Source: Branchiostoma floridae
Lineage: Eukaryota; Chordata; Leptocardii; Amphioxiformes; Branchiostomatidae
Assembly (NCBI RefSeq): GCF_000003815.2
Contig: NC_049995.1
Location: 17,153,924 to 17,217,923, forward strand
DNA: 64,000 nucleotides
Direction of reading: 5' to 3'
Shown: positions 2,642 through 57,411 of the stretch, in pieces
Position numbering within the stretch: the first letter of the stretch is position 1
How the letters are laid out: each line of letters begins with the position of its first letter
The notes under the pieces: model-generated
Told to the model about the DNA's origin: nothing
Seen by the model: the letters and a program-made list of their open reading frames with translations, nothing else
The model's database searches: none
Position numbers and translations under genes: made by a program

Positions 2642-2687
2642 CGAAAGCGTGGTTCAACAGCTCGTGAGCTGTACCGCTGCCACCAAT

Positions 2688-29300: not shown

Positions 29301-32300
29301 GACCGTGTTCTCTCGCGGAATGGGTTCGACATTTTTTTCCTGTCTTTGATATAGAGACTGCCACCTCAAAACTGTCTATCTTACTTTAAGTTGTCATTAT
29401 TGCTTAAGTCAGCGTTTTCAAACTGTTTACTCTCTTTCAGTCAGCGTTTTGAAACTGTCTTTGTCGATTGTTATTGCTTTGTTATGTTCAATCCTATGTT
29501 TGTAGTTATCTTTTGTACTTTGAGTTATTATTGTTGTTATAGGGCTCCCTTGGAAATCAGTTACCACGTTAACTGAAGGGACTACCCTAAAGATCAATAA
29601 ATAAATAAATAAATTGTCTTTGTCGATTTAAGTCAGCGCTTGCATCCAGGCTCTCATACATTTAGTTAACATTTTTGAAATGTCTCAATCGCTTTTGGTC
29701 GGAACAGTTTGACTCACAGATTTTGACACAAATTTTCAACATTTTTATCAAAAGAGATGCTGAGCAGACCGTATTCTCTCGCGGACTGAGTTTGACATTT
29801 TTTCTGTCTTTGATATACAGACTGTCACCTCCAAACTGTCTTTCTCGCTTTCACTCAGCATTTTCGAACTTTGAGTCAGCGATTTGAAGCTGTCTTTGTC
29901 GATTTAAGTCAGCATTTACAGCCAGTCTCTCCTGCGTGTAGTCAGCAATTTTGAATTTCAAATTCTCCATTGCCCGTCTTTCTCGCTTTCATTCAGCTTT
30001 ATAAGCTGTTTTCATCACTTTCAGTCAAGGTTTTGGGCGAAGCCTGACTTTGTTTTTGCTAACCAAATGAGATGACTCCTGTAATGCATCTTCATCTTAC
30101 CTTTTCTTCGATTTCACCTCCTTTACATCACAAACGTTATTTCAAAAAGTTATTTATACCTTCTACCTGAGTGTCATTCTGATGAATGTACACAGAAAAT
30201 TCCTTCAACAAAGATAACGAGAAAACTAAATCATCGCATGACTAAACAAATGGTCGGATTTACAGCAAACTGACAGGGTCATTTCAGGTCGAGGGCTTAG
30301 AGCTCAAGACACGTCAGGAATGTAACGGTGCAGACTTAATGAATGACTTATCAGGTCCTGGCGTGTATGCAGTCACCTGGTAGAGTTTTACAATGGGATC
30401 TGGTCAGCGTTTGACAGCCTTAAAGAAGGGTCTGCAAGACGTCGCAAGGGAGACCTATAGAAGACTTTGCATTCGAGGAGTACATTTTTAACTTAGCCTA
30501 AAACTAAGCTAACTTTGACACTGAAATCTGTATGGATGAGACCGTTTTTGATGGCGACGCTTGCGCCACATATCTTTACCATGCATGTTCAGCGCCGAAG
30601 GCCGTGGGGTCCAGATAAATTGTGAAATTTGGACCCTTTGAAACGCCATTTCCTGCATTTTCAGGATATTTTTTTGGTGCTTGACTTCATGGGTATAACG
30701 GGTTGCGGTGAATTTCTTGGAGGGTCCTGATCAACGTTTCAAAGCCTTAAACTAGTCAGAAATATCACTTAGTGATGCATCACAACTTACAAGGGTTACA
30801 GTGTGCTCTGGTCAGCGTTTGATATCACTAACGTAGTCACAATATGTAGCGATTACAATAGGCCCTGGTCAGCGTTTGACAGTCCTAAAGTAGTCAGTGT
30901 TAGCAGTTACAATAGGCCCTGGTCAGCGTTTGACAGCGTTAAAGTAGTCATAGTTATCAGTGATACATCGCAACATGGAGGGGTTACAGTGGCATCTGTT
31001 CAGCGTTTGACAATCCTAAAGTTATGAAGTCAAAGTTACCAGTGAATGCATCCCAACTTGGAGGGGTTACGATGGACCTTGGTCAGCGTTTGACAGCTCT
31101 AACGTAGTCAGTAATGCATCACAATGGGTCCTGGTCAGCGTTTGACAGCGTTAACGTAGTCATAGTTATCAGTGATACATCGCAAAATAGTGGGGGTACA
31201 GAGGCATGTGTTCAGCGTTTGACAATCCTAAAGTTATAAAGTCAAAGTTACCAGTGAATGCATCCCAACTTGGTGGGGTTACGATGGACCCTGGTCAGTG
31301 TTTGACAGCTCTAAAGTAGTCAGTGTTATCTGTGATACATCATGACCTGAGGACACCACCTCCGGTTCAAGGATTAAGCACCGTAAATCCAGACTACAAA
31401 CTTCCGGATTGACAAGGTCATTACCAAGTTCAAGACTACAGATGGCCTGAATGGGCGGGTGTGCATCGTGTCAAGTTGAACCGCTTGAGTCATTGGTGGC
31501 TATTAGGTTCTAGAAATAATCAAACATAAGGAGTACACAACAGTGGGCTGTAGTTTCAAAACATTTAGAAGGCTGTCGAACGTTTGACTTCACACTTGAG
31601 GTCATTGATGGACACTAGCCTGAAAGGGCGTGTGTGCGTCATGTCAAATTAAGCCGTCAGGTGACTATCAAGTTTGCCTCTCTTCTAGAATTTAATCAAA
31701 TATAAGGAGAGTAAATTACATCAGACTGCAGTTTCAAAACATTTTGAAGTCTGTCAAACGTTTGTATTTTGCACTTGAGGTCATTGATGGACAATTACCG
31801 TATTACCATGTACAAGATTTTAGAAGGAAATTCGTTTGATAAGTCTTCAAATAATACATGTCTAAGATGAAGGTATTTTAAACGAGAATTACATGCTTAT
31901 TGTGTGTCTTTTTGGTATTTTGACATCTTTATTCCGTTTTATTCATTCACAGGAAAGCTGGTGTTTGCCGACGAAGGAAAGAACATTGTCTTGCGAACGC
32001 GGAGCATTCTGGTCCAAGATGGCGGCGAACTCCACATCGGAAGTGAGACATGTCCCTACCTAAGTGACGTCACGATTTCTCTCTACGGCAAGTCCGACGA
32101 GGGGGAGAGTCATCCCCTCTTTGGTAAAAAGTTCTTCGGAGTAAACAAAGATGGAGTGGTCGAGATACACGGAAAGCCGAAACTGTCATGGACGCAGCTT
32201 ACCGCTACGGTCATGTCGGAGGGGCTACCAAAAGGAGGGCATCACTCCGGTGTTGGGCATCGCGGGATTAACCTTAGAGTATTGGACGAGCTGACGGGAG

Positions 32301-35300
32301 AGGTGGTGGAGAACTCCTGGTACGATACCTACATCAACATGGAGGATAGTAAGAAGCTGTCCGCGGCCCTCAACGGGGTGGCTGACGGCAAGATCATCAT
32401 CATGGCGGTCAGAGACGAGGGTTCGAAAAGTTTGGGTACTGCCGCGAAGAAGGCCATCAGAAGTCTGGGCAGTAAAGAGATAGACAAGTTGTCGTACAGG
32501 TTGGTATCTCTTCATGTCGGTCAATGGACCGATCCCAAAACCACGCCCCCTTTTCGATCTTGGTTCTATTTCGAACACCTTCGTCAAAAATAGCAATTTC
32601 TGTCCCACGGGGCAGTTTTTGACGGACGTGTTCGAAATAGAATAGGGGGTTCTGTTTGTTCGATATGGCGTTCGACAGGATCCGTCCATTGCAACAGTTA
32701 CTACTTTATTTTCTGAAACATATGAAGTATAGTATTTCTGCTCTATTCATCCACATAGAGCTCAGATCTGCCAAAGACATTGACAAATTGCAGCTACCTC
32801 ATTTTATAAAAACATTCTGCTATATTCATTAGCGATGCGAATACCAACTAAACAGCTCACAGCTCAGCCAAAGTTTCACCAGAATTGGGAGGCGTAGACT
32901 TAACTGTTCCATCTGATCCAAAACGTCTCCAGATTAGGGCAATAAGTTCAAGTTTAAAGTTATCAAGGAATGAACTTTGCCCCTTTTTTACTTCTCAATG
33001 TCCGAACTGTGACTTCTGCCTTTCACGCAATGGATCAAAATGCACTTATTATCTCCCTAATGTTAACGATAGACATTCATTTTGCAAAAGTAATAACTTC
33101 AAAGTAATAACTTCAAAGTAATAACTTCAAAGTAAGAACTTCAAAGCATGAACTTTCCTCGGACATGGTCGGTCGACGTGCTTTACACACGACATGGTTA
33201 TACCGCTCCTTACGGGGGGGGGGGGGGGAATACCCTTTCGAATAGCTGAATACAAGACGGGGATGCGCCAGGTCTCCCGTCCCGGTGAATGATGTTAATC
33301 ACTGTATATGGCTGATACGAGACAGAGGTTCGTCAAGCCTTCATCCTGGTTATTTGTAGTGAATCACGAACTCCCGACAGAAGGATTTGCACCAACGCAC
33401 ACCGCACCATCGCACGCGTGGCGGGTTCTTTAACGTGCCTGGGGCATGGCTCTCCCCAGACACGGGACCTCCACCGTCCTATCCGAGGGACGGTTCTAGC
33501 CAAAGCTGGGTAAAGTGAGGAAAGCGGTGTAAAGTTTCACCTGAGTAAAGTGAGGAAAGACGTTTGAAGTGGCTTTCCCAAGCGCACAAGATCGGTGGCA
33601 CGGCAGCCGGATTCGAACCCAAGACCTCTCGGTCACAAGGCAAACACGCTGCCGCTGCGCTACGCATGTATACGGAAAGGAAACGTCATATTTCACAAAC
33701 GTGTCCCAGCTTGCAAACTCGTGGAAATTTCTCTTTTGATTCAGCGCATCCATTGGTACGACCGCCAGTAAAGACAGATGAACAAAGTCAAGAAAATCTA
33801 ACTTGGGGACAGATAGCATGATAGTAAAAGGGATATTAATACTCTAGCTTTTGATCAGGAAGAATTTGTCAGCTTTACTAGCATTCATTTGCCATATGAT
33901 TTCACTGGCCGACAACGCTCTGGCGTTGGCGTTGATTGTAGTTGTCTGTCGCTTGATGTAAATCAGGAATTTTCACAAGAGGAATTTTCTTTCAAAACGC
34001 TTTGCTGAGTCTGTGAAAAAAATAAGCTATCTTTCTCGGACACGCAACCCAAGGAAACGTCATATATACGGCAAGAAGTCGTCAGGCCGTTCCAACCTTA
34101 AAAAATCGTGGAAATACTGTAAATACAGAAATGTTCGCGGTGGATTTATGTTCGCGGTTTTCGCGTCTGCCATTTCACCGCGAATTTAAAAGCACCGCGA
34201 ACATTATTTCCAGGGCATTAAGATACTACAGTGAATGGTGCTACCGCGAAATTAAATCTCCGCGAACTTAAATGCATTTACAGTATGCCTTTTGATTCAG
34301 TGCTTTGGCAGTAATGACAGATGGGCGAAGTCAAGAAAATCTTTGTTTTGAAGACTGATAGCATCGTATTATTAGGAAGAATTTGGAATTTCGGCAGAAT
34401 TTGTCAGCCTTGCTTTCATGTCACCAAGCGTGTTCACTGACAGAGCGAGTTTTGGCGTTGACTGGAGTTGTCTGTCACTTAAGATAAATCCGCGTTATCA
34501 CCCAGGGCAAATGAGGAATTTTCTTTCAAAACAATTTGCTGAGTATGTGACAAATAAGCTACTTAATATCAGACGTGCTTAGTTGACATACGTGTCTTGT
34601 CATAACTAACCCCCTTTCGGTGACAGATGTTGTCTAAACGTTTGTTTAATAGTAAAAACATGTCGATCGTGTTACTTACTGTAGGGACTTGGTTTGTCAG
34701 CTGGTTCCTGGTCGTCAGGGGATTAAATAGTCACTGGAAACATCTTACATAGACACAAACTGTGACTGTTATTTCACACATCGGTAGATAGATTTTTACT
34801 GTACAAATATACAGGTGACAAATTTATATGATATCCAATCCACGTTTGGCGTTGACTTTTTGAAATTGACCTTTAAAAATCTGTTTCGATGAATTTGGTG
34901 AATCATCTTCGAAACTCTTGCCCTGTCTATAACTTACGAAGTTCGCTCCGTTATTTAGCGAGAAGTTATATCGTTAGCTATTGTATTTTGTATTGAAACT
35001 TTCTGATATGACTAACTAGCCTGCTATCCATCTGTATAATAGCTCCCGAGGCTCTTCTGTCCTCTCTGGAGAAGAGACTCGGGAGCTATAATCCTATAAA
35101 ACGCATTTGGGGAGAACAGAAGAGACTCGTATGTCTGATTTTCAGTTCATTCCATGTTTGCTTTCTATTAGATCAAAGTTATAATTTGTTGTATATGTCA
35201 CAGTAGAGATCGCGATCTAGTAGAATCGTTGATTCTCCTAGGAGAGATCACGATCGGAGTTTCTCCTAGGAGAGATCACGATCGCAATCTGTACTAGTAC

Positions 35301-38300
35301 AAACGACGATANNNNNNNNNNNNNNNNNNNNNNNNNNNNNNNNNNNNNNNNNNNNNNNNNNNNNNNNNNNNNNNNNNNNNNNNNNNNNNNNNNNNNNNNN
35401 NNNNNNNNNNNATTTGTTTTATATGGACTCCAGGAAGACTAGTGATCCATCACCGGAGATCTCAATATACCAGACCAAACCAAACTCGGAAGCTATAACA
35501 CGGCTGGATACCAGCCTAATGACTAACAGGTGTCACCAAAAACACATGTCACTGGAAACATCTAACATAAACAGAAACTGTGACTGTTATTTTACACATC
35601 GTAGATAGATTTTTACTAATACAAATATTCAGGTGACAAGTTTCTATGATATACCCTCCACATTTTTGGGATGACTTTGTGAAAATGATTGTCTCTTTTA
35701 AACTGTTTTGATAATTGGTGTGAATCATCTTCATCTTCCTGTCTATACCTTACGACTTTCGCTTAATTTTATTGCGAGAGGTTAAGAGGTTAGCTTTGCA
35801 TTTTCTGATATAAAGAAAAGAGACCCGGGACCTATCATACGTATTTGCAGAGAGGACAGAAGAGACTTGGGAGCCATAACACGGCTGGATACCAGCCTAA
35901 TGGCTAATAGGTAACACCAAAAACACATGTACAGACACATGTAAGCCTTCAGAGGTTCTCTGCTATCCATGTTATGAAGTCAAACCAGGACAAGCCAAAC
36001 ACACGTGACTTCTCACAACATGTCATCCGTCCAATGTCAACACCCAACCACTTATCTACTTGACCTTTTGACCTTGACCCTGTTTCGCAGGGAACCATGG
36101 GTATTCCTGGGTGTCAAGGGCAACACGAGTGCTGCTATGGAGAAAAGACTGTCTTACAAAGGTAATACGGACACTTTCTTTGTTATTTTAGAGTATTTTG
36201 AGCTGCACATTTTTGTAAGTACATTCTGATTTTCTTTTCCACACAAAAAAAATAAAATTCGATTTTTCTTCCCAGACGCACACCGTACGGGAACTGCAGG
36301 AGTATCCCGGATGTTCACCACGCCCTTTGGAGCATCTTTCAAGATAGAAGCAACAAGTTCCTGGTCAAAAGGTCTGGTTGCATTTCATAGGTTAACGCAC
36401 TAAGATAAAGGCTGTTACATGTAAAGAAGCTCATGAATGCATTGTTAGCCATCATCAACTTTGTGATCCTTTATTTAACGTATTGTACATCATCCTCGAA
36501 ACCAGACCATAATGGCATGGCTGGCGTTGCCGTTTCATAAGCCATTCCTTCCCTTCAACCTTCCCTCCTTTCCTTTCTTTTCCTCCATAATTCCTTCTTT
36601 CATTCCTTCCTTCTCTCCCTTCTTCCTTCCTTTCTTGCTTCTAACCCTTCCTTCCTTCGTCCTCCCACCATTGGTTCCTTTCGTCCTCCTAACCTTGGTT
36701 TTGTTCCTCCCTTCCACCCTTCCTTGCTTTCTTCCTTCTTTCATTCCATCCTTCCTTCCTTCCTCGACCTTCCATCCTACCTTCCCTCATACGTACATTC
36801 ATGGAATATTCTATCTGTCTACAACAATACATTTTGATAACTCTTCTCTAAAACTTCCAGGAAAGTCAGACTTCCACATCTCGGTCACCGGAAAGGTAGC
36901 CGACTACGTCATCAACCTGAACGATGACGTCACTTCCTGGCAGCCCGGGGATCGGATCGTACTGGCCAGTACAGATTACTCCATGGAGCAGGCGGAGGAG
37001 TTTGAGTTGCTTCCGTGTCCGGAGTGCTCCAAATACCAGGTCAAGATCAACGGTAAGCACTATGGCTGACTTGGGAGGTTAAGATAAGTTACTTCTGGTA
37101 ACATGAGTGCAGTACCACATTGTCCACGTCTGTCCCACAGTAAATTTTTAAAGAATCTGTGATCCTACTACGTAGAGATCCAGATTCGGGTTTCTATGGA
37201 CAGAAAATCTGATCTGTCTCGCTACTGGTAAAATTGTCATTTTGCCGGATCCCAATCTCTACCCCAATTTTTTAGCTCCTTGCTCTACCCTAACATTTAT
37301 ACAACAATACCCCACAATAGACAAGTCAGGTTTGATTAAAAAAAAGCACTTTTATCCTGTACTAGGGAAGCAGACTGAGACTATGGTCTCGCTCTCTTTG
37401 AGTAGAATCGCCGATTTTGCCAGATGTAAATCTCATCTCCAACATGTATAGTTACTCTAGAATAGTCCGGTCTGTTTAATGCACTTCTATCCCGCGCTAG
37501 GAAAGCCGAAGTACATGCACTTCGGTGAGATCTCAGACGGAGTGGACCTGAGGGGTGAGGTCGGACTGCTGTCCAGAAACATCAAGATCCAGGGCGAGGT
37601 CGAGAGTCGTTGCTATGGAGACAACTTCTGCCAGTTCTTCGATTACGACACCTTTGGTGGCCATTTCAAGGTGGGTGAACTCTGACTTCGAAGGAGTCAT
37701 TTTCGTAACTGCCAATACCTTTTTCAAACATGAAATCGGAGATCAGCTACCTCCGTGATAAAGAGTGTCTGTAAATCTCTTCAATACCAAATCTTAAACA
37801 AATCCCTCGTAAGGATCATGACTTATATAGGTGTAAACCCTCTAACACAACCCAAAATAGTAACCCCCCCCCCCCTCTCAGTTGACCCTCGTCCCCGAGG
37901 TAATAACAGTATAACATTTCTAGGATAACAATATTCCTTGTTAGTAATCAGGATCTATATAAAGACAACAGTCCACGTTTTCTTGACCGCCGGTCCCTTT
38001 CCTCAGGACAATACTGACTGGGTCTGGTTGGTACTGCAGCCAAGTGTAGCCTCTTAAAAATAGACCACAAACATAAAGTATTGTCATCTTTGCAGTCCCA
38101 AGCGTGAAGTATTGTCACCTTTCTTGCAGGTACTCGGAGGTTTTGACTTGATGTCACTAAATACCCTGCTATTGGATACAGTGGATAAAGGTTACCCCAA
38201 GGATAAAGGTTGTCATCTGACGTTAACATTCCTTGCAGGTGCTGGGAGGTTTTAAGAGCGTGCACCTGTCGGGGGTAGAGTTCAACCACATGGGTCAGCA

Positions 38301-41300
38301 GATCCTGGGCAGCTATCCGGTACACTTCCACCTAGGGGTGACCTATATCCGGTACACTTCCACCGTGGGGTAACCTATATCCGTTACCATCTCTTGCAGG
38401 TGCTGGGAGGGTTTAAGAGTGTGCACCTGTCCGGAGCAGAGTTCACACACATGGGTCAACTTCCACCGCGGGGTAACCTATATCCGGCACACTTCCACCG
38501 TGGGGTGACCTATATCCGGTACACTTCCACCGTGGGGTAACCTATATCCGTTACCATCTCTTACAGGTGCTGGGAGGGTTTAAGAGTGTGCACCTGTCCG
38601 GGGCAGAGTTCGCCCACATGGGTCAGCAGATACTGAACCGTTATCCGGTACACTTCCACCGCAGGGTAACCTATATCCGGTACACTTCCACCGTGGGGTA
38701 ACCTATATCCGTTGCCATTTCTTGCAGGTGCTCGGAGGGTTTAAGAGCGTACACCTGTCGGGAGCAGAGTTCACACACATGGGTCAGCAGATAATGGGCA
38801 GGTATCCGGTACACTTCCACCGCGGGGTAACCTATATCCGCTACACTTCCACCGTGGGGTGACCTATATCCGGTACACTTCCTCCGCGGGTTAACCTATA
38901 TCCGGTACACTTCCACCGTCGGGTGACCTATATCCGGTACACTTCCACCGCGGGTTAACCTATATCCGGTACACTTCCACCGTGGGGTGACCTATATCCG
39001 TTACCATCTCTTACAGGTGCTGGGAGGGTTTAAGAGCGTGCACCTGTCCGGAGCAGAGTTCGCCCACATGGGTCAGCAGATACTGAACCGTTATCCGGTA
39101 CACTTCCACCGCAGGGTAACCTATATCCGGTACACTTCCACCGTGGGGTAACATATATCCGTTACCATCTCTTACAGGTGCTCGGAGGGTTTAAGAGCGT
39201 GCACCTGTCGGGAGCAGAGTTCTTACGCATGGGTCAGCAGATAATGGGTCGGTATCCCGTACACTTCCACCTGGCTGGTGACGTAGACGAGAGAGGCGGT
39301 TACGTCACACCGACCTACGTCAGAGACCTGTCCATCCACCATTGCTTCTCTCGATGCGTCACGATTCACGCGACCAATGGGCTGCTGGTAAGGTGTCATG
39401 TCAGATGACAGCAAAAGTCAGCTTACTAAATGAATATAAAGAGTGAAAGATGTCACTCAAAACTTCCGGAAATAATCCCCGTACCATCCATTAAGACCTA
39501 AAGTCGGATTTGTTTTTAGATATTGTTTACCTCGTTGTCTTAACTTTATAAAATTGTCAGCAATAAACATTTGCAAAAATGATGATAAATCTACTACAAA
39601 TTCGCGCCCGAAGACAAATTCGACATACCACGAACCAATGTCAATGTGGTTTGTTTAGCTAATTTTTTACAGGCTAAACAGAAGCCTCAGTTTTTCTACA
39701 ATAAAGTGTTTATAGAGTTTTTCGTTTATATGGGAGTAATAAGAAGTTGTTCCAACACAGCTGTTAATATGAATAAATTAAGGTTCAAACAAACAAAATA
39801 TTTTCCTCCAAGGTACAAGACACCGTAGGCTACGACACCTTAGGTCACTGCTTCTATCTCGAGGACGGCATCGAAGAGCGGAATCGGCTGGTGCACAATC
39901 TGGGGCTAGTTACCCGACCCGGCACCCTTCTGCCTACGGACCGGGATGGCGTCATGTGCAGGGACATCAGGACTGGGGTGTTCGGGGACTACATACCGCT
40001 GGGGAGCGACTGCAAGTAAGGCCCAGTTTACACTTGTCATTTTAACTGTAGTACGACACAGCGTAGTCTACCACTGTAGTAGCCTACGGACCGGGATGGC
40101 GTCATGTGCCGGGACATCAGGACTGGGGTGTTCGGGGACTACATACCGCTGGGCAGCGACTGCAAGTAAGGACAAGATTTGTAGATACACGTTATGTGGT
40201 GTTACTGTAGGGTAAAACCCAGAGGTCCTGCGCACGGACCGGGATGGCATCATGTGCCGGGACATCAGGACTGGGGTGTTCGGGGACTACATACCGCTGG
40301 GGAGCGACTGCAAGTAAGGCCCAGTTTACACTTTTTATTTCAACTGCATACGTAGTACTGCACAGCGTAGTCTACCCCTGTAGTAGCCTACGGACCGGGA
40401 CCCCGTCATGTGTCCGAACATCAGGACTGGGGTCTTCGGGGACTACATACCGCTGGGCAGCGATTGCAAGTAAGGACAAGATTTGTAGATACACGTTATG
40501 TGATGTTACTGTAGGGTAAAACCCAGAGGTCCTGCGGACGGACCGGGATCCCGTCATTTGTCATAGCGACTGCAAGTAAGGACAAGATCTGTAGTTACTA
40601 GGGCTGGGTATCGGTACAGCGTACCGGTACAAAACCGGTTTTTCTTATTGGACCGGTCCAGAAAAACCGGACCTGAAAAAATTAGGTGGACCTGATGTTG
40701 GACCGATTAGAAAATTAACATATTATTTGATCAGGCATTCACACGTTTTGGCGCTTGCAGTTGGAAGAAAATGACAAGAGTGAAGTAGAGTAGAGTTTAT
40801 AGTAATTTCTACCAAGTTTGACAGTCAATCGTACAGGTGCAGTTAGCGTTGTAGGATTTTAAAACGCCAGTGTAAGTCTAATACTCCACCAAACAGATTT
40901 ATTTGTGGTGAAATGGACCATTGATATGAGTCAAAATGAATCAGGTCCAGGTTCGGACCTGGACCTGATCCTCTGGACCTGAACCGGACCTGGACCTGAA
41001 TTTTCTGTACCGGTACCCAGCCCTAGTAGTTACTGTAGTAGTTTTAGTAATGGATACCTGGCATTGGTTGGGAAGGTAAAAGGAAGCTGAAGGAATAACA
41101 ACCTTCTGTCCTACTTCCTCAAAAGGCTGTGAAGCTATCTTAACCTTTTACCTTAAGTTAATAAAATCATCCTGGTCTATACCAGATTCCATAGGCTATT
41201 CGTGGCTTCCTTCCTATAGTTCGTGAAACGTTCACAGTCTAACTGATTCCGTGCTTACTCCACAGCGCCGTGTCGACATTCTGGATCTCCCACCCCAACA

Positions 41301-44300
41301 ACGACCTCGTCAACAATTCCGCGGCAGGGTCAATGGTAAGGTATTATCATAAAGATTATAACTGCCAGTAATAAAACTTTCTTTTTGCGACATGACACGT
41401 TTTTTTAAAGTTCGTGATCATCTTGTTATTGACGTTCTAAAGATTTCATACGATATTAACGTAAACAGGGTAAAGCGCTTACCAACAAGCTTTCGGTCAG
41501 TCCTCCTCATGTTGAAATGACCATAGGCTTAAGTCATGTGACCTGAACGAAGGCATGGCGTCAGCAATGGGGCGTGACATTTTCCATGTACAATGTGTCA
41601 ACAAAACTTTTTTTTATGATGGACAAAAGTGTAAATTTTATAAGCGTTTCAGATTATAGTTGTCCTATATCTTACGGTATTTTATTTCTTCTTCAGGACA
41701 CGGGTATCTGGTACATCTTCCACGAGGTTCCCACGGGTTTGTCTGAAGGTCTTCACCTGGACCCCAGCACCATCTACACACCGCTGGGCAGGTTCTATAA
41801 CAACAGGGTTCACTCCAACGACAGGGTAAGTCACTACACATCATCTACACGCCTCTGGGTAGGTTCTATAACAGCAGGGTGCACTCCAACGACAGGGTAA
41901 GTCACTAGACACCATCTACACACCACTAGGCAGGTTCTATAACAACAGGGTCCACTCTAACGACAGGGTAAGTCACTAGACACCATCTACACACCACTAG
42001 GCAGGTTCTATAACAACAGGGTTCACTCCAACGACAGGGTAAGTCACTAGACACCATCTACACACCACTAGGCAGGTTCTATAACAAAAGGGTCCACTCC
42101 AACGACAGGGTAAGTCACTAGACACCATCTACACACCGCTGGGCAGGTTCTACAACAACAGGGTTCACTCTAACGACAGGGTAAGTCACTAGACACCATC
42201 TACACACCACTAGGCAGGTTCTATAACAAAAGGGTCCACTCTAACGATAGGGTAAGTCACTACACACCATCTACACACCGCTGGGCAGGTTCTACAACAA
42301 CAGGGTTCACTCCAACGACAGGGTAAGTCACTAGACACCATCTACACACCGCTGGGCAGGTTCTACAACAACAGGGTTCACTCCAACGACAGGGTAAGTC
42401 ACTAGACACCATCTACACACCGCTGGACAGGTTCTACAACAACAGGGTTCACTCCAACGACAGGGTAAGTCACTAGAGACCATCTACACGCCTCTGGGCA
42501 GGTTCTATAACAACAGGGTCCACTCTGACGACATGCTAAGTCACTAGACACCATCTACACACCGCTGGGCAGGTTCTACAACAACAGGGTTCACTCCAAC
42601 GACAAGGTAAGTCACTAGACACCATCTACACACCGCTGGGCAGGTTCTATTACAACAGGGTGCACTCTAACGACAGGGTCAGTCACTAGACACAGGCACC
42701 ATCTACACGCCTCTGGGCAGGTTCTATAACAACAGGGTTCACTCCAACGACAGGGTAAGTCACTAGACACCATCTACACACCGCTGGGCAGGTTCTATAA
42801 CAACAGGGTCCACTCCAACGACAAGGTCAGTCACTAGACACCATCTACACACCACTGGGCAGGTTCTATAACAACAGGGTCCACTCCAACGACAGGGTAA
42901 GTCACTAGACACCATCTACACANNNNNNNNNNNNNNNNNNNNNNNNNNNNNNNNNNNNNNNNNNNNNNNNNNNNNNNNNNNNNNNNNNNNNNNNNNNNNN
43001 NNNNNNNNNNNNNNNNNNNNNNACAACCCGGCCGAGCTAAATTCTTGATTTGCAAAACCGGCTTTAGGACAGTGCGTTTTGCCGTGGTCCCACTGTTCAT
43101 TGTGCTTGTCGAAAACAGCTAGGGGGATTTCCCCGTACAATGAATCTGTAAATGGAAGACATGGCGTCCCTTTCTTTGTCATGACCAGTGGTATATATGA
43201 GCTCATCTGTGGTCAGTTTATTTGAGCTACGCTGGTTCGAGATCACTTTTAACACGAAGTATGAATAACAATTTAATGAGCATCTTTTTTTTTGTCCCTC
43301 AGGCAGGCTTGATGCTGGATTGCGGTGTAAAAACTACGCACCCAAACTCACAGGACCCGCGGGAGTACCTGGCCATGGATAAGGGCAGGTGGGCAGTACT
43401 GTCCTTATATTCAAATCACAAATTGCATAAAAAAGCGAGGCCTCTCGTCTTCCCCTGCGTCTCAAAAGAAGTCAAACCCACTCTGTCTAGATAAAGCCAA
43501 CACTAGTCAAGTAATCTCTTTTTACAAAAACTTGCAAGTAACCCATTGGTTGTGTCAAAGAATTTCTCCCTTATCCTATATTCTACCAACCTGATGAAAC
43601 TATTTTCGGTTGCAAGTAACCTCCGGGCACGAACTTGCAAATAAATTTCGATATTCTGTTCTTCATATTACTTCAAGAACAGAAATTGTTTGATTTTTCT
43701 GCCAATTTTCAGTCCGTGGGTCCTTCGTTGTTTTTCTCAAGTTATTTTTCATCAAACCAGTTCTTGACGGTGCGTCAGTGTTTTTGTTTTCAACTTTCAG
43801 GTACGCCCCCCACGAAGACGGAGACGTGTCCAAAGCCAGAGTGCCGGCCCTGATAGAGGGGCTCATCGCCTACAAGAACCACAATGACGGGGCCTGGGTT
43901 CGGGGCGGCGAACTGAGGCTGGATAAATGCGCGTAAGCAAATACATAAATAACCTTTATTCTAACTGGATAGCCCTGTCGGCCCCAGTCGCTCTTCCCAG
44001 AGGTCCAATGGATGGAGAACATAAATAAATCAATACCAAAATATCGTACGTATACTTGTAATTGATCCAATGACCGAGTGGGTAGAGTGTTCGCCCTGCA
44101 ATCGTTTGGTACATGGTAGTGAGCCATGCCAAACACTTTATACTTCATTCCACTTTCTCTGTTTACCACTCAGCGTTTGGGTAAGGAGTATGAAAGTTGA
44201 ACACACACCACTACCAGTGGACTAGCCCCATGCTGCAGTGATTGCATAAAGTCGTGTGACCCAAGGACAATAGAAATGGAGATGGGCGCCGCCAGATATA

Positions 44301-47300
44301 TTTAAAGAATACTTTCATTTTTCTTTCTGTTGTTTTCTACTGGATTATATTGTACTAAAAACTGACCGGAATTTTACATGTTGCAGATTCGTGGACAACG
44401 GAAAGGGCCTGACGCTGGCAAAGTATGTATCTAGTCTGTTGTGTCTTCTGAACTTTAACATGGCGCCTCTGACTAACGAAGGTTGTTTGGAAATAAAGCA
44501 GAGGCTGTCCTAATTTGCCGTTTGTGTATGAGATAATAATAGGCAGTCAAAGAAGACGAATTGGCACTCATTGCCTCGTGTTTTGTCTGAATTGTAGACC
44601 AACTGTTCCAAGCATGATAAAAAATCTAAACATAATGAGCCATCAATCGCTCTACCCGCCAACATCACATGCCTTTGTAGGGATCGTTCATGAGTGGATC
44701 AAATCTAGGGTTACGAAGTGTTTTATGTACTTTATGTAAGATTGGTAAGGCCACAGCAAGTACATCTTATGGATGACATCCACGCGCTCATTAATTTTCG
44801 CCTGATTTGAGAAAGAAAAAAAAAACAAGATTTTTTTTCTTCGTCAGGGATGGTCAGATAGACCAAAATGGGTAAAGGGGTTGTGTTGTAACCAAATAAT
44901 AGAATATAGAATTGACACTAGATGGGTAGCATTGACTGTAGTTGCAGAAGTGAAACTTGCTGGATAGTTGTAAGAGTGACACCAATATGGAAGTCATGAG
45001 TGTAGTTGCCAACATGGTTAGTGATACCATTCTACCACACTGGTGTCACTTTTACTACACTGGTGCATTTCTTAAATACAGGAATGAATGCCTTGTTGGT
45101 TGTGATGCCATATTTTGTCACTTCAATTCTTGTTATAACGTTTATGGTGTCTATTTTGAAAATTTACCATCTTGTTTTTTTTTTACCCGTCTTGTTTTTT
45201 TTCTCGCCCTACCTCATTATTTTTGCAGTTTTCAGAGGATGTCATCCATAAAATTTACTTGCTGTGGCCTAATGTTTACTCATGTTAGGCTAAGGTCACA
45301 TTTCCAAACTTAGACCCGGCCGACCCACCGCCGGTTTGGAAATGCTACGTTGACCTTAAAACAAACAAACGCCAAAAATTGAAGTGAAGATTAAACAAAT
45401 AATAGTACGCTTTAAGTGCTTTTGAACAATAAATCGTTTACCCGTGATCTTTTATCCCCAGTGACGGAACCTTCCCCAGCGATGACGGCTCCACGCAGCA
45501 GGTGTGGAACAGCGTGTTTATCGGGGAGAGCGCGAACGTGGGAACCGACGCCGGCGGTAACAAGTTCTACGGCACGGGAGGAGTGGGCAAAAGCTGGCGG
45601 ACGTTACCACGAGGCAGGTTAGGTCAATAACTTCGAGTGTTTCAAATTCAGGGCTTTCGCCTATCGGTACCAAACACACTTATGGAAAAGAATAGGGATA
45701 CTCGGACGTCGGTTATAAACTGTGACCTAAATTGCCGGAATATCATGCCAATGGAACTAAAAAGACAACAAAATACACAAATCGTTAAAAAAATTTAAGA
45801 TAATTAAATTATTCGCTTTTAGCCCTGATGTTTGTTGCGCGCTCTGTCAAATCTTATGTCGCATTCAGGTCGTCGCCCCAGTTGAAATAGCGTGGATTGG
45901 ATTCAGTTTAAAGTATGCGCTTGCGTGAGAATATCATACTTTGTCTTGCGAGAACTTCCTATGTAAGAAGACGAGATCTTGTTAAACTAGCCCTAGCGTA
46001 GTGAAGTCGCATTGCACTACGTCCAGACGAAAAAGCACAATATATTAATATGCTTGGCCGGCTTTTGTTACTTTCTTATACCAGGTACATCAGCATTGAG
46101 ATTAACAATGTTTTACCTCAGTTAATGATGACTTTATATTTTCCCTTAATGCATAGCGACTTCCCGATGCGAGGCCTACAGATATACGACGGCCCGACCC
46201 GGGTACTGAACTGTACCTTTAAGAAGTACGCTCGTACCGAGGACCGGCTGTCCAGCGCTATCGGGTTCCGACTGGACAACACCTGGCAGGGATCACCCAA
46301 GAACAACCTCACCAGGGTCAAGTTCGAGCATGTGGGTACGCTACGTCATCGTGTAGGTAGATGAAAGGAAGGGAAGGGAAGGGAAGGGAAGGGAAGGGAA
46401 GGGAAGGGAAGGGAAGGGAAGGGAAGGGAAGGGAAGGGAAGGGAAGGGAAGGGAAGGGAAGGGAAGGGAAGGGAAGGGAAGGGAAGGGAAGGGAAGGGAA
46501 GGGAAGGGAAGGGAAGGGAAGGGAAGGGAAGGGAAGGGAAGGGAAGGGAAGGGAAGGGAAGGGAAGGGAAGAGGGTAGCTTGATGTTTGAACTAACCCAT
46601 TTTCCATTTGAATGAACTTGAACTTGATTAAGCCGAGACAGGTAAGTTCACAGTGCTTGTGCCTACTTGTTACCAACAGTTTTGTTTGTATTTTTTTTTG
46701 TACTGCGAAAGTCCATTTTTTTACATTTGATTCCTTTTTCTCCATCAGTATGAACATTTTGTTCCGTAGCTCAAAGAAATGACCCTCAAAGAATGCCTTC
46801 TCCATTGAGTTTAAGGAAAAAAAAAAACTTAACCATCCTCAACTCATAAGATAGCTCACTCGCATGTCAGCAATTTTTCATTGCAGCAACACACCTGCAT
46901 GATAACAAAATGACCGTAGTTAGCATCTAACCATTACCTTACTCCATGCTAATTTTTAGACCGTCTCCAGAGTGTATTACGGGCACCCCGGCCCCTGGTT
47001 CGGTTCGAACGAGAAAGATGGCGACAAGACGTCGATGTTCCATGACCTTGACGGGACGGTCACGGGGTACCGTGATGTTTACGTCACCAGGATCGATAAC
47101 TGGATCGCAAGGAATCCTGGGTGCGTGGAAAAGCCGGACTGGAAGGGAGTCATCTGTAGCGGGAAATACGCACAGGTAGAATCAAAGTTTTATGGGTGCA
47201 ACGTAAAACGTTTACCGACAAATCTTTTGGTCACCCCTCGTTGAGATAACTGGAAGTGTATGTCACATGACCTGAACGAAAGTGTGACGTCAGCAACGGG

Positions 47301-50300
47301 TTAAAGGTGTCCGTTAGTCGGTATCGGCCCCCGCCTCAGTTGAGGGATGGCCACGTGACAAAGGTATCGGGCCATGACAGTAAAAAATGTCAATTAATCA
47401 ATCAGCAGTAATCGGATAATCTGCGGTTTAAATTGCAAATAGACAATTGATGTTTTTTTTCGTTTTGTAAAATTGCTATAACAGATTGAATTAGATGCTC
47501 AAATACGCAGTTGGTTTACACTTTACATTGTTCATCAAATTATTATCTTAAATGACAGATTTGTACCAAATTTAGATCCACGCAACAAAAGAGGTATACA
47601 TAAAACTAACTATAACTTCCAGTTTTTCAGTACCTGTTTTATCTATCATTTATTACAGTTGTACGTCCAGGCCCGAAACCCCCACACCAACACCATGTGG
47701 GTTCGGAGGGACGAGTACCCTGACCACCCCCTCAAGCTGCACGGTGCACTCGTCGACGCGCACTACCAACAGTACCAGCCCGTAGTCATGCTGGAGAAGG
47801 GCTATACCATTCACTGGGACGGGATGGCGCCGGCTGAGATCACCATTCACCCCATCAACTTCGACAGGTTGGGAACATTTTAAAATCAATCAATCGTATC
47901 TGTAACAAAGGGGAACATGGACCCATCTGAATGTTTTTACTTCCCTTGAATCCAGTCCTTGTAAAGATTTGTCAAAACCATCCAACAACAGAGAAGGGGG
48001 ATCCATAGATTTTCTGCAACTTATGACCCACTGCTCACAGAGTCACGTGTTCTATCTGCATTACGTAACGTCTCGGAAGCGGCGAATTACTCATTCATTG
48101 GTAAAGACTGGAGTTGATCATCCGAAGTTTTTTGTATGTTCGATCGGCAATAGCAGATTCTTAAAAAAACTTATCGTAACATTTTCACCCACTGTAGAGA
48201 CGACTTTGTCCGGTTGGGCTGTGCTATCCCCGCGTACCCAGTTTCAGATCATCTGATTCAGAACAACTTATCATAATTTATCATATGATTCATTCATAAC
48301 AACTTATCATAACATTTCTATCCACCACAGAGACGACTTTGTCCGGCTGGGCCTGTGCTACCCCCCGCGTACCCAGTTCCAGATTATCTACCAGCTGTGG
48401 CAGAGGAGCCCGAAGAAGTTCTACGGAGACGAGGAGGTTTACCCGGCCTTCTCTGTGGACGACATTGAGAACAGCGTCGGCAACTCCTACTTCTTCGACG
48501 AAAGTACAGGGTAAGTAATCGTTCACGATCTGACTGGTAATACTTCCCATTGCAGCTAGGCGTCGCTGCTGCGTTACAAATACTGTTCTAAACGTAAAGT
48601 CGGCTCATGTATAAACGTGCCAGCCTCTTACCATTCCTTGTTAAATATTTCGTTTGCATCAAATTTTCACAATAACTATACCTACTGTCGCCTGTTTCAT
48701 GATCAATGCTGATGACCAAACACTTCAGAACACAAAAACAATTTACTAACACGTGATCTTGCGGATATGTGACGTCAGGAATTGGTCAAAAGTGCTAGGA
48801 AGTTTAGGATTGCACGTTTTCCAGCCTCCTGTTTCTGAAAGTGAGCGCCCGGTACCATAGAGATGGGGACAGCTACTGTTCGCCACATACACTCGCGAAA
48901 GTTACACACGATGTTATTAACACGTGTTACGTGACGTCGGCAATTGATCAAAAGTTTGTTTATGCTTTTTTCCCAGCCTCTTGTTCCTGAAGGTGAGTGC
49001 CCGGTACCATAGAGATGGTGACAGCTACTGCTCCAGTATGGGTTGTGAGAGAATCATCATCCACGCCTTCGTCATGAGCGACGAGGTGGCGAACTGCACC
49101 ATAGAGGCCTACCCCAAATATTACACCCCGCCTACGGAAACGGTCCCCATGGCAATCCACGTGGCTGAGCAAGAGTCATGTTCTAATTGTGGATCCCAGG
49201 TTAGTAATTAAAGATTCTAGTACTGAAGAAGATACATCTCTCATTAATTTGCATTAATATTTTCATAAAGACAAATATTTTCATTAAATAGTTTATTACC
49301 ATAATCTCTTTCAGCATCTAGAAAATGTCCAAAATCACACATTTATCAAAATGGAAAGAAAAGCATTTATCATAGAAATGTGGGACTATTTATTAGTCTA
49401 AAGCAGACTTCTAACACGTGTACCCACCCTCCCTTAGTTATGCAGGTAGAAACATTGGACAGAACTATAGAAGAAGAAGAACTTTATAGACGAGATTTGT
49501 TCCTTCGGAAATAGCCTTTGGGCATGAGTTTACAAAGATTATCATTATTATCATCATTTATCTTTTAAGCCATCGTTACTACTTTGCTAATGTGCACCTT
49601 GTACATCTGTTATTCTAAGCATGCACTTTATTCTCCAGATCCCGATAGTATTTGATGATCGGCAACAGTATGCCAACATAACTATAGTATCCAGCGGATT
49701 CTTCGAGGTGAAAAATGGACTACAGACATATGTAGAGGTGAGCCACATGATATTTTCTCCTTTCTTGTGTCTTAGACATGCTATGGTCATGGTTTTTGAG
49801 AGCTAAATAGCTTTTGTGGGAGTTACTATTGCTTCCCTGTGCTATTCCGTTTGGGGTATTTCTTCACATAACTATCAACTCGGTCATAATGTTTGCTAGT
49901 GGCATTCAATGGCAGAGTGGGCAGGCTATCAAACGTCATCAGATTGAGAGTTTATGGCCTCTATTCCTGGCGTTCATGGCTAAACGTTGTACCCTTGGGA
50001 AAGACCCCTTTCAGAACTTTCCCCAGGTGGGAATATGGATATCTGACTAAGATTGGGGAGTTTAAAGGCAATATAAGTAGATGGGCTCAACCTGCCAATA
50101 CCGTGCCCTAAGATACAGTGTAAAACAACTCACTGCCCCTACGGCCTTTAAAAAACTATGAAACTACCTTTACTCTTCTGTTTGTTTTCCAGGTGAACGG
50201 TGTAAAGGTCATAGGTCGCAGGGGTTACCTGGTGGTGGCGGTGGACGTGACGTCAGGTAACGTCACCCATCAGCGCAGCTTTGACACGTTTGCGCAAGCG

Positions 50301-53065: not shown

Positions 53066-53579
53066 ACATAGCTTAGCTTATTGCCCACATAAGGTCTGGT
53101 TTAAATAACTAATAAGGCCACATTGATGTGATTTATGAACCCCTTTGCGAACATTTCGCAGTTCGCGATTGACCATTCACAAATTGCATGATCTCGGAAC
53201 CTAACAGAATGAACGACAAGGGTGCATTCGTGCACATTTGTACAAATTGTTGACACACTATAAACAAGCCAGTTCAAGAATGTTCTCCAACGCGTTTATT
53301 GTTCTTTGTTGTTTTACAGTTCTTAAACTTATAAATCTATTGCACCATCCAGCAAAGTACAAGTTAGCAAAGACATATTAGGTAATGTTTAAAACATACA
53401 CATGTCGGTGTATAGTCCAGAATATAGCTATAGATTCTTCTTCTTCTTGCTTTTTAGTATCGGTGCAAATGTGGGATTAGCTACACTCAGCTGTTTATCA
53501 AAATGCACGAAAAATATATAAATTTCTCGTGTACCTTAAGTAAGGGAATCTATAATGCTGACCCTTTCTTCAGAATTCC

Positions 53580-53916
53580 TCATTTCAAGTACAATTCAAC
53601 GATTCTGTTTCCTGCTAGGACGACTTCATCCTTGCGCACTACGTCGCCCGGTCTCACCTTTTCCATGTAATCTTTCACCGCCTTTTCCTCGAGTTCAAGC
53701 TCGAGGGCTTTTACAGCGTCATAGATGTGCTTCTGCCAGTTTAGACTTTCGGCAACGTCACGGTCAAAGTGGCGTCGTTTATGCACAGGTTTGACTTTGA
53801 TGAGTTTTGTCAACCCATCAGCGCTGCTTCCATACATGTCTTGGCACCAGGAGACGACGTCTGATGAGGTGATGGTAGATTTTGCTGGAGTGTGCTGCAC
53901 GCAGGGTGTACCCTTC
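53580..53916 (-). CDS. Cassette A terminal exon (8A)
   Basis: Begins KGTPCVQHTPAKSTI, ends NRIVELYLK and stop. It differs from 8B mostly in its first 37 codons; the rest is almost identical. Acceptor TTTTATAG. Confidence 0.85.
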
Positions 53917-56062
53917 CTATAAAACATGACAAAGAATATTTAGACCGTATAGAGCCAGCAGACGTGTAAAATTCTTTGCACAGTGCAACGCCAATCATTA
54001 CGATCTCTTTTAGGACGCTCACTGTAGCAGCAACCGAAGAACTCTACTCTACTCTACTCTACTCTACTCTACTCTACTCTACTCTACTCTACTCTACTCG
54101 AGCATCTCTTCTCATTATTAGTCAGAAACATTGAGCTTCAGCAAATTCGACTATATAAACTGACTCAATAGGCGAAGCAGGGGCTACGAGGCTGTTCGGT
54201 AAGTACTGTACCAATGTCGAAGATCTTTACAAAAGTCGTTGTAATTTGTAATCTTTGTTGTTAAAGATTAACACTTACTTATAATGGCTACCGACGTTAC
54301 CCGTGAGCCTCTGCTCACAAGTGAAGCAATAGCTGGTTTTGCACACGACACACCGGATGTGGTTGTCGGTGTTTCGCTTCCGGTTCATCCGATGGCATGC
54401 CGGGCAGGGTGCGCACTCGGCGTGGTCGAAAGCGGTCGGGTCGACTTTCAGGATACCTCGGACGGCGTTTACAATCTGTAACATAGGAATAGTAACAGTA
54501 CTTTAGTGCCATAGAACAAAAGTATTCTGATTTTAGTAACTCAACTTAATTCACCGATTGCTCTAGTGTCTGTCACCTTCTTCTGTGGTTCTACATCACA
54601 CTGCAACTATAGGTCGGTCCAGAGCTATATGGTGAGCAACATTCAGGGAGATATCGACTATTCTCCCTTCGCAGCCAAGGACTGAATTATTGTGAGCTTA
54701 AGGTGGGGTCACACCTGCGTATCTATTTAAGTCCGTATGAGGCGCGCATGGGAGTATTTACCTCCACCAGGCCTCACAGGTCGTTGGAAAAATGATAGAA
54801 ATTGGACAAACGTAAACAGGTAACATGCCAGACGAGTTAGCTGGGTCGCTAACCATACTTCTCAGTCAGCTAACTCATCTGGCATGTTATTTATCTATAT
54901 TTGTCCAATTTGTACTGTTTTCCCCGCGACCTGTGGAGCCTGGTAGAGACTAAGAGCGTTATACGCACCTCAAACGGACTTGAATATATACGCATGTGTG
55001 ACCCCACCTTTACAACAGGCAGAGCTAAATCGCAAGGGCCTGGATCTATATATGGAGCGAGCTACCATTCGATTCCACCCAGGCGGGTGACGTCAATACG
55101 TCTGCCGCATGCAAGGGTTTGGAGCGGCTGATTTTAGCGCTTAAACTCAATTGACCTTAATACGACTGTCGCAAGGGTCAGGAGCAAGCTGCTATTTGGC
55201 GCCACCTCAGGTGACCTCAATACGAGAGACATAATCCCGTAGTTGCATGCGTGTCGGCAAGGGATTCGTAAAAAGGTACTGTAAATGCAGAAATGTTCGC
55301 GGTGGATTAATTTTTTCATAACAGTAAGAGACTGCAGTGCATGGTGCTACCGCGAAATTAAAACCACCGCGAAAAGTCCATTTTCCCGCTACCGCGAAAT
55401 TAAATCCCCGCGAACATAAATGCATTTACAGTATCCCGACATACCGGTGGTTCCTGGTTGGTTTGCCGCCTGTAGCAGCTACATGTGGTGGATGGAGCTC
55501 CACAGCCGTAGCAGAAGCCGTGTTTACACCGGACACAAAACATGCTGTTGCACCTGCAAAGGCAAGGAAAAAGTAAGACACTTTATCATAGAAGTCCACC
55601 TGTGTCGGAAGTGTTCATAGTTTAATGCTAAACATTCGTCCAACTTTCTGTGTAAGAGGTATAAAGGAGGCTATATACATCAAGGCACTCCAGCCCTCAC
55701 TGAACAAAGACGGCGGGCGTTATAAACATCCTTGCACTTAACTAGAAATGCGATTATTAATAGCTTGGGGATACGTTTACTAGACATTTGAGCTCATGGC
55801 ATTTTCAAAAGTTGCATGCATGTATTTCAAGAGACAGTGTTGTGTACTAGTCTTACCCGGTAGTCCTGTATATCGGCGCGTGACATTTCGGACAGGGTGT
55901 TGTTGTGTCCATGATGAGTTTGTTGGAGAGAGCGTCGTGCTCCTTTCTTCCTTTCACTCTCTCTTCCCATCCCTCCATCCCGTCAGATCCGGTCTCACCG
56001 GAAACAGTGATCCGGGCACTCGTTCTTTTGTTCTTCCAGACGCGGTGAGAGCATTGTCCTAA
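53580..56062 (-). CDS. Duplicated 3' cassette of the RBR ligase gene (four exons)
   Basis: Four minus-strand exons, 55857-56062, 55445-55553, 54279-54475 and 53580-53916, have the same lengths (206, 109, 197, 337) and phases as exons 5-8 of the RBR gene at 57923-60696. They carry the end of the IBR, the full RING2 with its catalytic-type Cys (TGCNSMFC), the extra Cys cluster and the C-terminal helical region, ending in a stop. No frame is broken and all splice sites are intact. There is no own start codon or RING1, so it may be an alternative 3' end spliced from exon 4 (61240), or a silent duplicate. Phase 0 at its first acceptor fits exon 4 exactly. Confidence 0.82.
54041..54099. repeat. (ACTCT)n microsatellite in the cassette A intron
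   Basis: About 12 perfect pentamer units; absent from the matching intron of cassette B. Confidence 0.96.
54279..54475 (-). CDS. Cassette A exon 7A: extra cysteine cluster
   Basis: Encodes IVNAVRGILKVDPTAFDHAE and CPACHRMNRKRNTDNHIRC then VVCKTSYCFTC. Acceptor TATGTTACAG, donor AA|GTAAGTG. Confidence 0.86.
54700..55010. mobile_element. Foldback MITE, AAGGTGGGGTCACAC ends
   Basis: Ends AAGGTGGGGTCACACCTGCG and CGCATGTGTGACCCCACCTT are inverted repeats of about 22 bases. The middle has a second hairpin (ACATGCCAGACGAGTTAGCT against AGCTAACTCATCTGGCATGT). Not seen in cassette B. Confidence 0.85.
55277..55433. mobile_element. MITE family C, copy 2, next to the exon 6A donor
   Basis: TACTGTAAATGCAGAAATGT / TCGCGGTGG and CCGCGAACATAAATGCATTT / ACAGTA, as in the copy at 34115. 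Its edge is about 11 bases from the splice donor at 55443-55444, and it is absent at the same place in cassette B. Confidence 0.82.
55445..55553 (-). CDS. Cassette A exon 6A: RING2 core
   Basis: Encodes CNSMFCVRCKHGFCYGCGAP then STTCSCYRRQTNQEPP. The translation is the same as exon 6B. Acceptor CCTTTGCAG, donor CCG|GTATGT. Confidence 0.88.
55857..56062 (-). CDS. Cassette A exon 5A: end of IBR and first half of RING2
   Basis: Encodes LGQCSHRVWKNKRTSARITV and LIMDTTTPCPKCHAPIYRTT. I chose the acceptor GCCCTCAG|TTAGG over the one four bases on because it restores phase with exon 4 and gives the IBR WH...C spacing. Donor GG|GTAAGAC. Confidence 0.86.
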
Positions 56063-56172
56063 CTGAGGGCGGAAACATATCATACAAAATTACTTCCAAC
56101 TTCCATTCCTGTTTAAAGTGTTCATTGATAATTCGGCTTTCGAGCCGCAAGTTGGCTGTGATACAAATAAAC

Positions 56173-56204
<32 letters not shown>
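56173..56204. repeat. (CT)n microsatellite
   Basis: About 16 CT units near the joint between the two duplication copies. Confidence 0.95.
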
Positions 56205-56207
<3 letters not shown>

Positions 56208-56619
56208 AGGGGCACGATCCTTCGATAACTTAAGACATTTTTAAGAAGTTAAGAAAATAATTTTAATCGGTAATGTGTTGGCGAATTCCCTATGCCAAAT
56301 ATGTTCAAATCACCAAATGTTTCAATATTCTCAGTTTTTCACACAATAAGTAGGAATGAATAACAGTATAGATAATGTCATATTTGTAATGTATTTTGAC
56401 GTTTATTGCTTGTCCATAATTTTTAGATCACAAAATGATGTCAAGGCGGTTCTTCGGAAACAACCGTTTCTAGACTTATTCGTCAAATGGTAAAAAGATG
56501 ACTGTACATATATTATATGGTATATATGCCAAATATGATGTAAATAAATAGATACGTGGACACTTTATGTTGTTTTTCATTTTTGCTCTCTTGCCAGTAT
56601 TATAGAGACTGGGGGAGGG

Positions 56620-56816
56620 GGGGTAGGAACGGTTAGGGTATTTAGTCTGGAATCCAAAAGTCTTGGGTTTGAATCCTGTCATGCTACTGATCGTGTACCC
56701 TTGGGAAATATACTTTCCTCACTCCACCCAGGTGTAAAACTGACTACCTGACTTCGGTTGGGGAGGTACAAGATGGTGGGAGGAGACGGCTAACATTTAC
56801 CATCACCTAGCTTAGC
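56620..56816 (+). repeat. tRNA-derived SINE family 2, right duplication copy (interrupted)
   Basis: GGAACGGTTAGGGTATTTAG and GGGTTTGAATCC, then the family body GACTTCGGTTGGGGAGGTAC. The duplicated block it belongs to is interrupted by the LINE fragment at 56817. Confidence 0.75.
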
Positions 56817-57411
56817 GTGGTCCACCTATGCCAAGCAGGAGAGTAGGTTAAATGCCTTCCACATGAGGTGTATTCGTCGCATCCTGGGCATATCATGGAA
56901 GGACAAAGTCACCAATGCCGAAGTGCTGTCTCGTGCTGGCCTCCCAACCATGTTCACCCTCCTCAGACAACGCAGACTACGCTGGCTAGGCCACGTCCGT
57001 CTCATGGAGGATGACCGAATCCCCAAAGACCTTCTCTTCGGAGAACTGATCTCAGGAAAGAGAAACACCGGACAGCCACAGCTGCGATTCAAAGATGTTT
57101 GCAAGAGAGACTTAAGGGCTCTGGATATTGACTCAGAACGCTGGGAGGACCTTGCAGATGACAGATCCAGCTGGAGATGCACACTGTCCAGGCAGCTAAA
57201 ATCAGGAGAAACCAGACTGATGCGCATGGCAGAAGAAAAGCGGAGCCTGCGAAAAGAACTCTGCAACAGACCTGAGTCAGCTTACAGATGTGCCCTGTGT
57301 GGCAGGGACTGTCATTCTCGTATAGGAATGTTTAGCCACAGTCGACGCTGTAGGGCTGATTACAATTAGGATTTTACCATGGCCAATATTGACCGAAGGA
57401 GGCCATATATA
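56817..57411 (+). mobile_element. 5'-truncated non-LTR retrotransposon (LINE) insertion
   Basis: A 595-base insertion flanked by 9-base direct repeats TAGCTTAGC (56808-56816 and 57412-57420). The corresponding site in the left duplication copy (near 53080) is uninterrupted. It carries the C-terminal part of a LINE ORF2 and a 3' end GGCCAATATTGACCGAAGGA / GGCCAT with a short (AT)n tail. Confidence 0.92.
56818..57369 (+). pseudogene. LINE ORF2 C-terminal fragment
   Basis: Open in one frame from the truncation point: STYAKQESRLNAFHMRCIRR then ILGISWKDKVTNAEVLSRAG, RLRWLGHVRLMEDDRIPKDL and a terminal zinc-finger-like CALCGRDCHSRIGMFSHSRRC. This is the usual region downstream of the reverse transcriptase in many metazoan LINEs (the LRW.GHV..M.D.R.PK motif). 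The RT and endonuclease are missing, so it is a dead fragment. Confidence 0.92.

What the first reader, a model, noticed from the sequence alone, without database searches (positions are those of the whole stretch)
38110..49042. At least five exons of one gene carry tandem copies of their own exon-intron edge
Exons 8, 19 and 20 have extra copies of their acceptor and first bases upstream. Exons 9 and 11 have extra copies of their last bases and donor downstream; exon 7 may be a weaker case. In each case the copy spans the junction, is truncated on the coding side, keeps the splice signal, and leads to a stop if read through. Five independent cases in 24 exons is far more than chance placement of minisatellites in introns would give. 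I recall a report of junction-spanning minisatellites at the amphioxus Adh locus, called mirage minisatellites. If that is right, this gene is a strong further case and suggests a process targeting splice junctions.
Basis: partly seen in the sequence, partly recalled or inferred. Interest (0 to 1): 0.9.

Follow-up and report, generated by a model that had tools for sequence, protein, structure and literature searches.

The report
Exon edges copied into neighbouring introns
Five exons of a hyaluronidase-like animal gene have their edges, splice signals included, copied one to fifteen times into the next intron; this is a known kind of oddity, but the pattern of differences suggests that the untranslated copies and the live exon have been swapping sequence.

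Summary
A 21-exon model of a CEMIP2-like hyaluronidase gene, open for 1182 codons and collinear with PDB 8c6i, carries 27 extra junction copies: exon 8 acceptor 6, exon 9 donor 4, exon 11 donor at least 15 (the array meets an assembly gap), exons 19 and 20 acceptors 1 each; shuffled introns gave none in 60 trials. Exon 7 is a possible sixth. 26 of 27 decoys lead to a stop. Such 'mirages' are described in amphioxus Adh3, globin, troponin C and PGBD5 genes (PMC3087553, PMC3902484, passages). 'Far more than chance' is not established: introns are short, so about a third of tolerated duplications of this size straddle a junction; P runs from 0.003 to 0.30 with the way of counting, 0.04 in the main count. 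New: changes among the intronic copies of exons 8, 9 and 11 are enriched for synonymous ones in the exon's frame (25 of 45, expected 14.2, P 0.0003), not in shifted frames or in three non-coding arrays. Copies and exon probably exchange sequence. A known kind with a new testable property. Species and RNA could not be checked.

The parts
31953..50755 (+). CEMIP2-like gene, 21 modelled exons (5' end and 3' end not modelled)
   Evidence: 1182-codon open frame across 21 exons; Pfam G8 (part), ILEI, CEMIP_beta-hel, CEMIP_X; 8c6i 1276 bits, query residues 6-1145
39178..39387 (+). exon 8 (real copy)
   Evidence: collinear with 8c6i
38116..39177 (+). six extra exon 8 acceptors; five carry about 58 to 93 alignable exon bases at a period of about 161 or a multiple, the outermost (38130) is degenerate; a nested 32-base repeat appears to derive from exon 8
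   Evidence: origin of the nested repeat read by eye
39813..40015 (+). exon 9 (real copy)
40016..40598 (+). four extra exon 9 donors, three with about 80 exon bases and one with about 12; unit about 150, tails alternating at about 304
41697..41825 (+). exon 11 (real copy)
41826..42922 (+). fifteen extra exon 11 donors, 71-base unit (59 exon + 12 intron); copy number is a lower bound
42923..43022 (.). 100-N assembly gap that the exon 11 array runs into
48165..48254 (+). one extra copy of the exon 19 acceptor and about 57 first exon bases, with two one-base deletions
48331..48510 (+). exon 19 (real copy)
48766..48881 (+). one extra copy of the exon 20 acceptor and 57 first exon bases; 6 of 6 scored exon differences synonymous
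48977..49199 (+). exon 20 (real copy)
37346..37372 (+). possible weak copy of the exon 7 acceptor
   Evidence: site 37366; 8 of 26 mismatches, chance expectation 0.08 junctions per trial

Best explanation
These are 'mirage' minisatellites: local tandem duplications that included an exon edge. They are tolerated because the exon-proximal site, the only one that joins to a whole exon, is still used, and misuse of a decoy gives a premature stop (stops shown; site use and message decay inferred). Afterwards the real exon edge and its intronic copies have kept exchanging sequence, by unequal crossing-over, gene conversion or repeated copying, so the intronic copies carry an excess of synonymous variation although they are not translated (excess shown; exchange inferred).
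For: 27 extra copies at 5 junctions, none expected by chance. Local repeats are common in the window: 27 clusters, 22 of them not on a modelled junction. About a third of tolerated duplications of this size should straddle a junction. Decoys end in stops in 26 of 27 cases. Many decoys match the real sites in strength: exon 9, 4 of 4 equal; exon 11, 11 of 15 equal, 1 stronger, 2 weaker, 1 broken; against 2 of 674 other intronic GTs scoring 8 or more. Among intronic copies of exons 8, 9 and 11, 25 of 45 changes are synonymous, context-matched expectation 14.2, P 0.0003; shifted frames 9 of 47 and 6 of 45; three non-coding arrays P 0.09, 0.36, 0.85. In exon 11, changes shared by two or more copies are 8 synonymous to 2, singletons 2 to 6. 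The real exon 11 edge lies inside the array's variation: mean distance 5.1 against 3.9 to 8.7 for the copies. Exon 20: 6 of 6 differences synonymous, P 0.007, or 0.001 without transition bias.
Against: No RNA was available, so use of the proximal sites is inferred from the protein. Exon 9 alone (5 of 10, P 0.23) and exon 19 alone (3 of 4, P 0.16 to 0.25) show no significant synonymous excess; in exon 8 the shared changes alone do not either (4 of 8, P 0.16). The shared-against-singleton contrast in exon 11 is P 0.054. The real exon 8 edge has five states that no scored copy has, three of them amino-acid-changing in two codons, which fits exchange poorly. Some counts leave room for junction targeting. 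One locus from one assembly; array order could be imperfect next to a gap.
Confidence: 0.65

Rival explanations
1. A process targets splice junctions: tandem duplication starts preferentially at exon-intron edges, for instance because exon ends are GC-rich or share short motifs.
For: In the self-comparison the five duplications in the 19 shorter introns that are not low-complexity are all on junctions; counted alone P is 0.003 to 0.01. 5 of 42 junctions against 2 of 161 interior points of shorter introns, P 0.005. Exons are GC-richer than introns without arrays (0.55 against 0.40), and the three large arrays are GC-rich (0.50 to 0.54).
Against: The interior control leaves out the arrays. Small repeats seen only by Tandem Repeats Finder (units 14 to 28 bases) were not counted as events.
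Confidence: 0.25
2. The copies are kept because they work: decoy sites make poison isoforms that tune expression, or are used as alternative exon ends.
For: Many decoys keep site strength, and copies show a coding-frame footprint.
Against: 26 of 27 decoys end in stops, 19 of 27 offsets are not multiples of three; singletons in exon 11 are not coding-like (2 synonymous to 6); the exon 19 copy has two one-base deletions. The stops do not by themselves exclude poison isoforms.
Confidence: 0.1
3. Assembly artefact: diverged haplotypes or repeat collapse produced false tandem copies.
For: A gap abuts the exon 11 array; PMC3087553 reports a mirage aberrantly assembled in a draft genome; allele differences would be mostly synonymous, as seen.
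Against: Copies of exons 19 and 20 differ by 15 to 22 percent over only 90 to 116 bases, unlike haplotype duplications (judgement); similar structures in PGBD5 were supported by re-examined reads according to PMC3902484.
Confidence: 0.07

Closest known systems
Mirage minisatellites of amphioxus (Adh3; globins BflGb6 and BflGb9; PGBD5; troponin C)
   Same: Tandem copies spanning acceptor or donor, splice signal kept in many units, both exon ends affected; published units run from 10 to 160 bases (passages of PMC3087553 and PMC3902484).
   Different: Five junctions in one gene here; the real exon 11 edge is not set apart from its array, whereas PMC3087553 reports cluster boundaries excluded from homogenisation in BflGb6; a coding-frame footprint in the copies is not mentioned in the passages I saw.
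Intron gain by tandem duplication of a segment with AG/GT proto-splice sites (Rogers model)
   Same: Tandem duplication at or near splice signals inside a gene; PMC3087553 proposes mirages as a route to it.
   Different: No new intron is needed to explain this gene; the duplications lengthen existing introns.

Membership tests
Mirage minisatellites | Tandem repeats whose unit spans an exon-intron boundary | tested here: met
   Five boundaries, 27 extra copies; 0 in 60 shuffles
Mirage minisatellites | Splice signals present in many but not all units | tested here: met
   26 of 27 keep GT or AG; 42536 has lost GT
Mirage minisatellites | Regular splicing not disturbed | not testable with these tools
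   No RNA data held
Mirage minisatellites | Length instability between haplotypes or somatic cells | not testable with these tools
   One assembly only; exon 11 array is cut by a gap
Mirage minisatellites | Found in a cephalochordate | not tested
   Species not named; genome search did not complete; lancelet origin is inferred
CEMIP2-like hyaluronidase | G8, ILEI, CEMIP beta-helix and CEMIP X domains in order | tested here: met
   (G8 matched from profile position 40 on); 8c6i
Intron gain by tandem duplication | A new intron bounded by the duplicated segment | tested here: inconclusive
   The model needs no extra intron to keep the frame open, but intron positions were not compared with related genes

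The most novel reading that the evidence does not exclude
Intronic copies are under indirect purifying selection: because they often overwrite the live exon edge, copies with amino-acid changes are a heritable burden and are weeded out, so untranslated DNA keeps the codon constraint of the exon it can replace.
Probability: 0.2. Interest if true: 0.8.

Novelty: new member of a known kind. Interest (0 to 1): 0.5.

Why it matters
The gene is a dense natural test of how the spliceosome picks one of at least sixteen mostly equal donor sites. If copies and exon exchange sequence, untranslated repeats become a hidden source of coding change, measurable from long reads, and mirages stop being neutral debris.

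Tried and rejected
Targeting of junctions was tested by a placement model and by interior controls and set aside as unproven. Points holding N were skipped in the control scan but stay in the 249. One search counted one incomplete edge codon of exon 11 as synonymous; corrected (singletons 2 to 6, not 3 to 6). One search, which included the real exons, gave 15 synonymous to 7 for shared and 22 to 17 for single states over the five exons. Microhomology at breakpoints was looked at by eye only; nothing is claimed. Translation of the copies was rejected on stops, frame and singletons. The IBR-type genes at 53 to 63 kb show no minisatellite-like cluster except near 60.8 and 62.4 kb, but their exons were not modelled. 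Rows dropped: exon 8 copy 38130 from the variation tests (too diverged), exon 9 copy 40576 (too short), exon 8 copy 38400 beyond base 58, and incomplete codons (48 events to 45).

Full report
The gene. Pfam finds ILEI, CEMIP_beta-hel and CEMIP_X domains and most of a G8 domain. The protein aligns with 8c6i, named cell surface hyaluronidase, over query residues 6 to 1145 with 1276 bits, so the exon edges at issue are well placed. That 8c6i is human CEMIP2 (TMEM2) is recalled.

The copies. Extra junction copies lie in the adjoining intron at exons 8 (6), 9 (4), 11 (15), 19 (1) and 20 (1), 27 in all. At 7 mismatches or fewer in 26, 5 of 40 junctions match their adjacent intron and none does in 60 shuffles; exon 7 matches at 8, where shuffles give 0.08 junctions per trial. 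Junction 24-mers against non-adjacent introns matched in 3 of 760 pairs. Tandem Repeats Finder sees the three large arrays independently. The exon 11 array ends in a 100-N gap, so its size is a lower bound.

Splice consequences. With a small weight matrix made from this gene's own sites (the exons concerned left out), the four exon 9 decoys score exactly as the real donor (8.8). Of fifteen exon 11 decoys, eleven score as the real donor (9.8), one scores 11.4, two carry GTCAGT (7.4 and 9.0) and one has lost GT (3.7). The exon 8 decoys score 6.3 to 9.4 against 9.4. The exon 19 and 20 decoys are weaker than the real sites (3.3 against 8.2; 7.9 against 11.4). Among other intronic GTs 2 of 674 score 8 or more, among AGs 10 of 647. 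Reading through to a decoy meets a stop in 26 of 27 cases. That the exon-proximal site is used follows from the protein alignment, not from RNA.

Chance. Tolerated duplications are those inside an intron or across one junction. For the estimated ancestral intron lengths, the probability of straddling is 0.20 for a 71-base unit and 0.32 to 0.36 for 133 to 162 bases. A self-comparison of the window gives 27 clusters of local repeats; in this gene there are the five, two further large duplications in the long first modelled intron (33766 and 34730) and two low-complexity arrays. Five of seven gives P 0.038; counting the low-complexity arrays, 0.078; the five alone 0.003, or 0.01 in the 19 shorter introns; 0.19 to 0.30 for shorter introns with the other duplications added, which is generous because two of those lie in the long intron. 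A copy anchored in a conserved exon stays recognisable longer; allowing a factor 1.5 to 2 (assumed) gives 0.11 to 0.20. Interior 24-mers have a copy in the same intron in 26 of 249 cases against 5 of 42 junctions (P 0.79), but 24 of the 26 lie in the long intron; outside it the figures are 2 of 161 against 5 of 42 (P 0.005), with the arrays left out of the controls. The answer depends on the count. An excess is possible; targeting is not shown.

A coding footprint in untranslated copies. Variation was scored among the intronic copies alone, leaving out the real exon, each state at each column counted once, against a null in which each change is put on another base of the same kind and CpG status in the same stretch. 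Exon 8: 10 of 17 synonymous, 4.5 expected, P 0.003. Exon 9: 5 of 10, 3.6 expected, P 0.23. Exon 11: 10 of 18, 6.0 expected, P 0.023. Together 25 of 45, 14.2 expected, P 0.0003. In the two wrong frames 9 of 47 and 6 of 45, no excess. Three non-coding arrays of the window, in three frames, give P 0.09, 0.36 and 0.85. In exon 11, 8 of 10 changes shared by copies are synonymous (P 0.001) but only 2 of 8 singletons (Fisher P 0.054): older variants look filtered, young ones do not. In exon 8 that contrast is absent: shared 4 of 8, single 6 of 9. For the two-copy cases, where the exon itself may have changed, the expectation allows for that: exon 20, 6 of 6, P 0.007; exon 19, 3 of 4, P 0.25.

What it means. 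A one-off duplication that then drifts in an intron should not give a synonymous excess among its copies. Either the copies were drawn from the exon many times, or exon and copies exchange by unequal crossing-over or conversion. The real exon 11 edge is not an outlier of its array (mean distance 5.1; copies 3.9 to 8.7), and the copy next to it is among the most diverged (7.7), so there is no gradient as simple serial copying might leave. I favour exchange. Against it, exon 8 holds five states that no scored copy has, three of them amino-acid-changing, and one locus cannot tell exchange from repeated copying.

Place in the literature. 'Mirages' are named in the abstract and passages of PMC3087553, with Adh3 as an earlier case, and passages of PMC3902484 add PGBD5 and troponin C. 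The Adh3 paper itself is not held and was not read. Searches showed no title or abstract start that reports a genome-wide count or a coding footprint in mirage copies; these saw an open-licence library only, and one search listed 20 of 45 papers and 15 of 24.

Verdict. Real, and a strong further case of a known kind. Targeting is unproven. The exchange signature is the part worth following.

Noticed in passing
window 44748-45270: Inverted repeat with 34-base arms, 94 percent complementary, 455 bases apart, in the intron after exon 14, like a small inverted-repeat transposon.
   Followed up: partly
window 53068-60741: Two copies of a minus-strand gene with IBR zinc-finger matches, matching each other in pieces of 71 to 97 percent DNA identity; an RBR ubiquitin ligase is my guess.
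   Followed up: partly
window 1-2653: Minus-strand reading frames that look like a Gypsy-type retrotransposon (label from memory, no family search).
   Followed up: no
window 39223-39228: Real exon 8 reads Leu-Arg where its scored intronic copies read Thr, Ala or Asn followed by His; 8c6i has Lys-His there.
   Followed up: partly
window 46363-46571: A 209-base near-perfect GAAGG array about 30 bases after the exon 16 donor.
   Followed up: no
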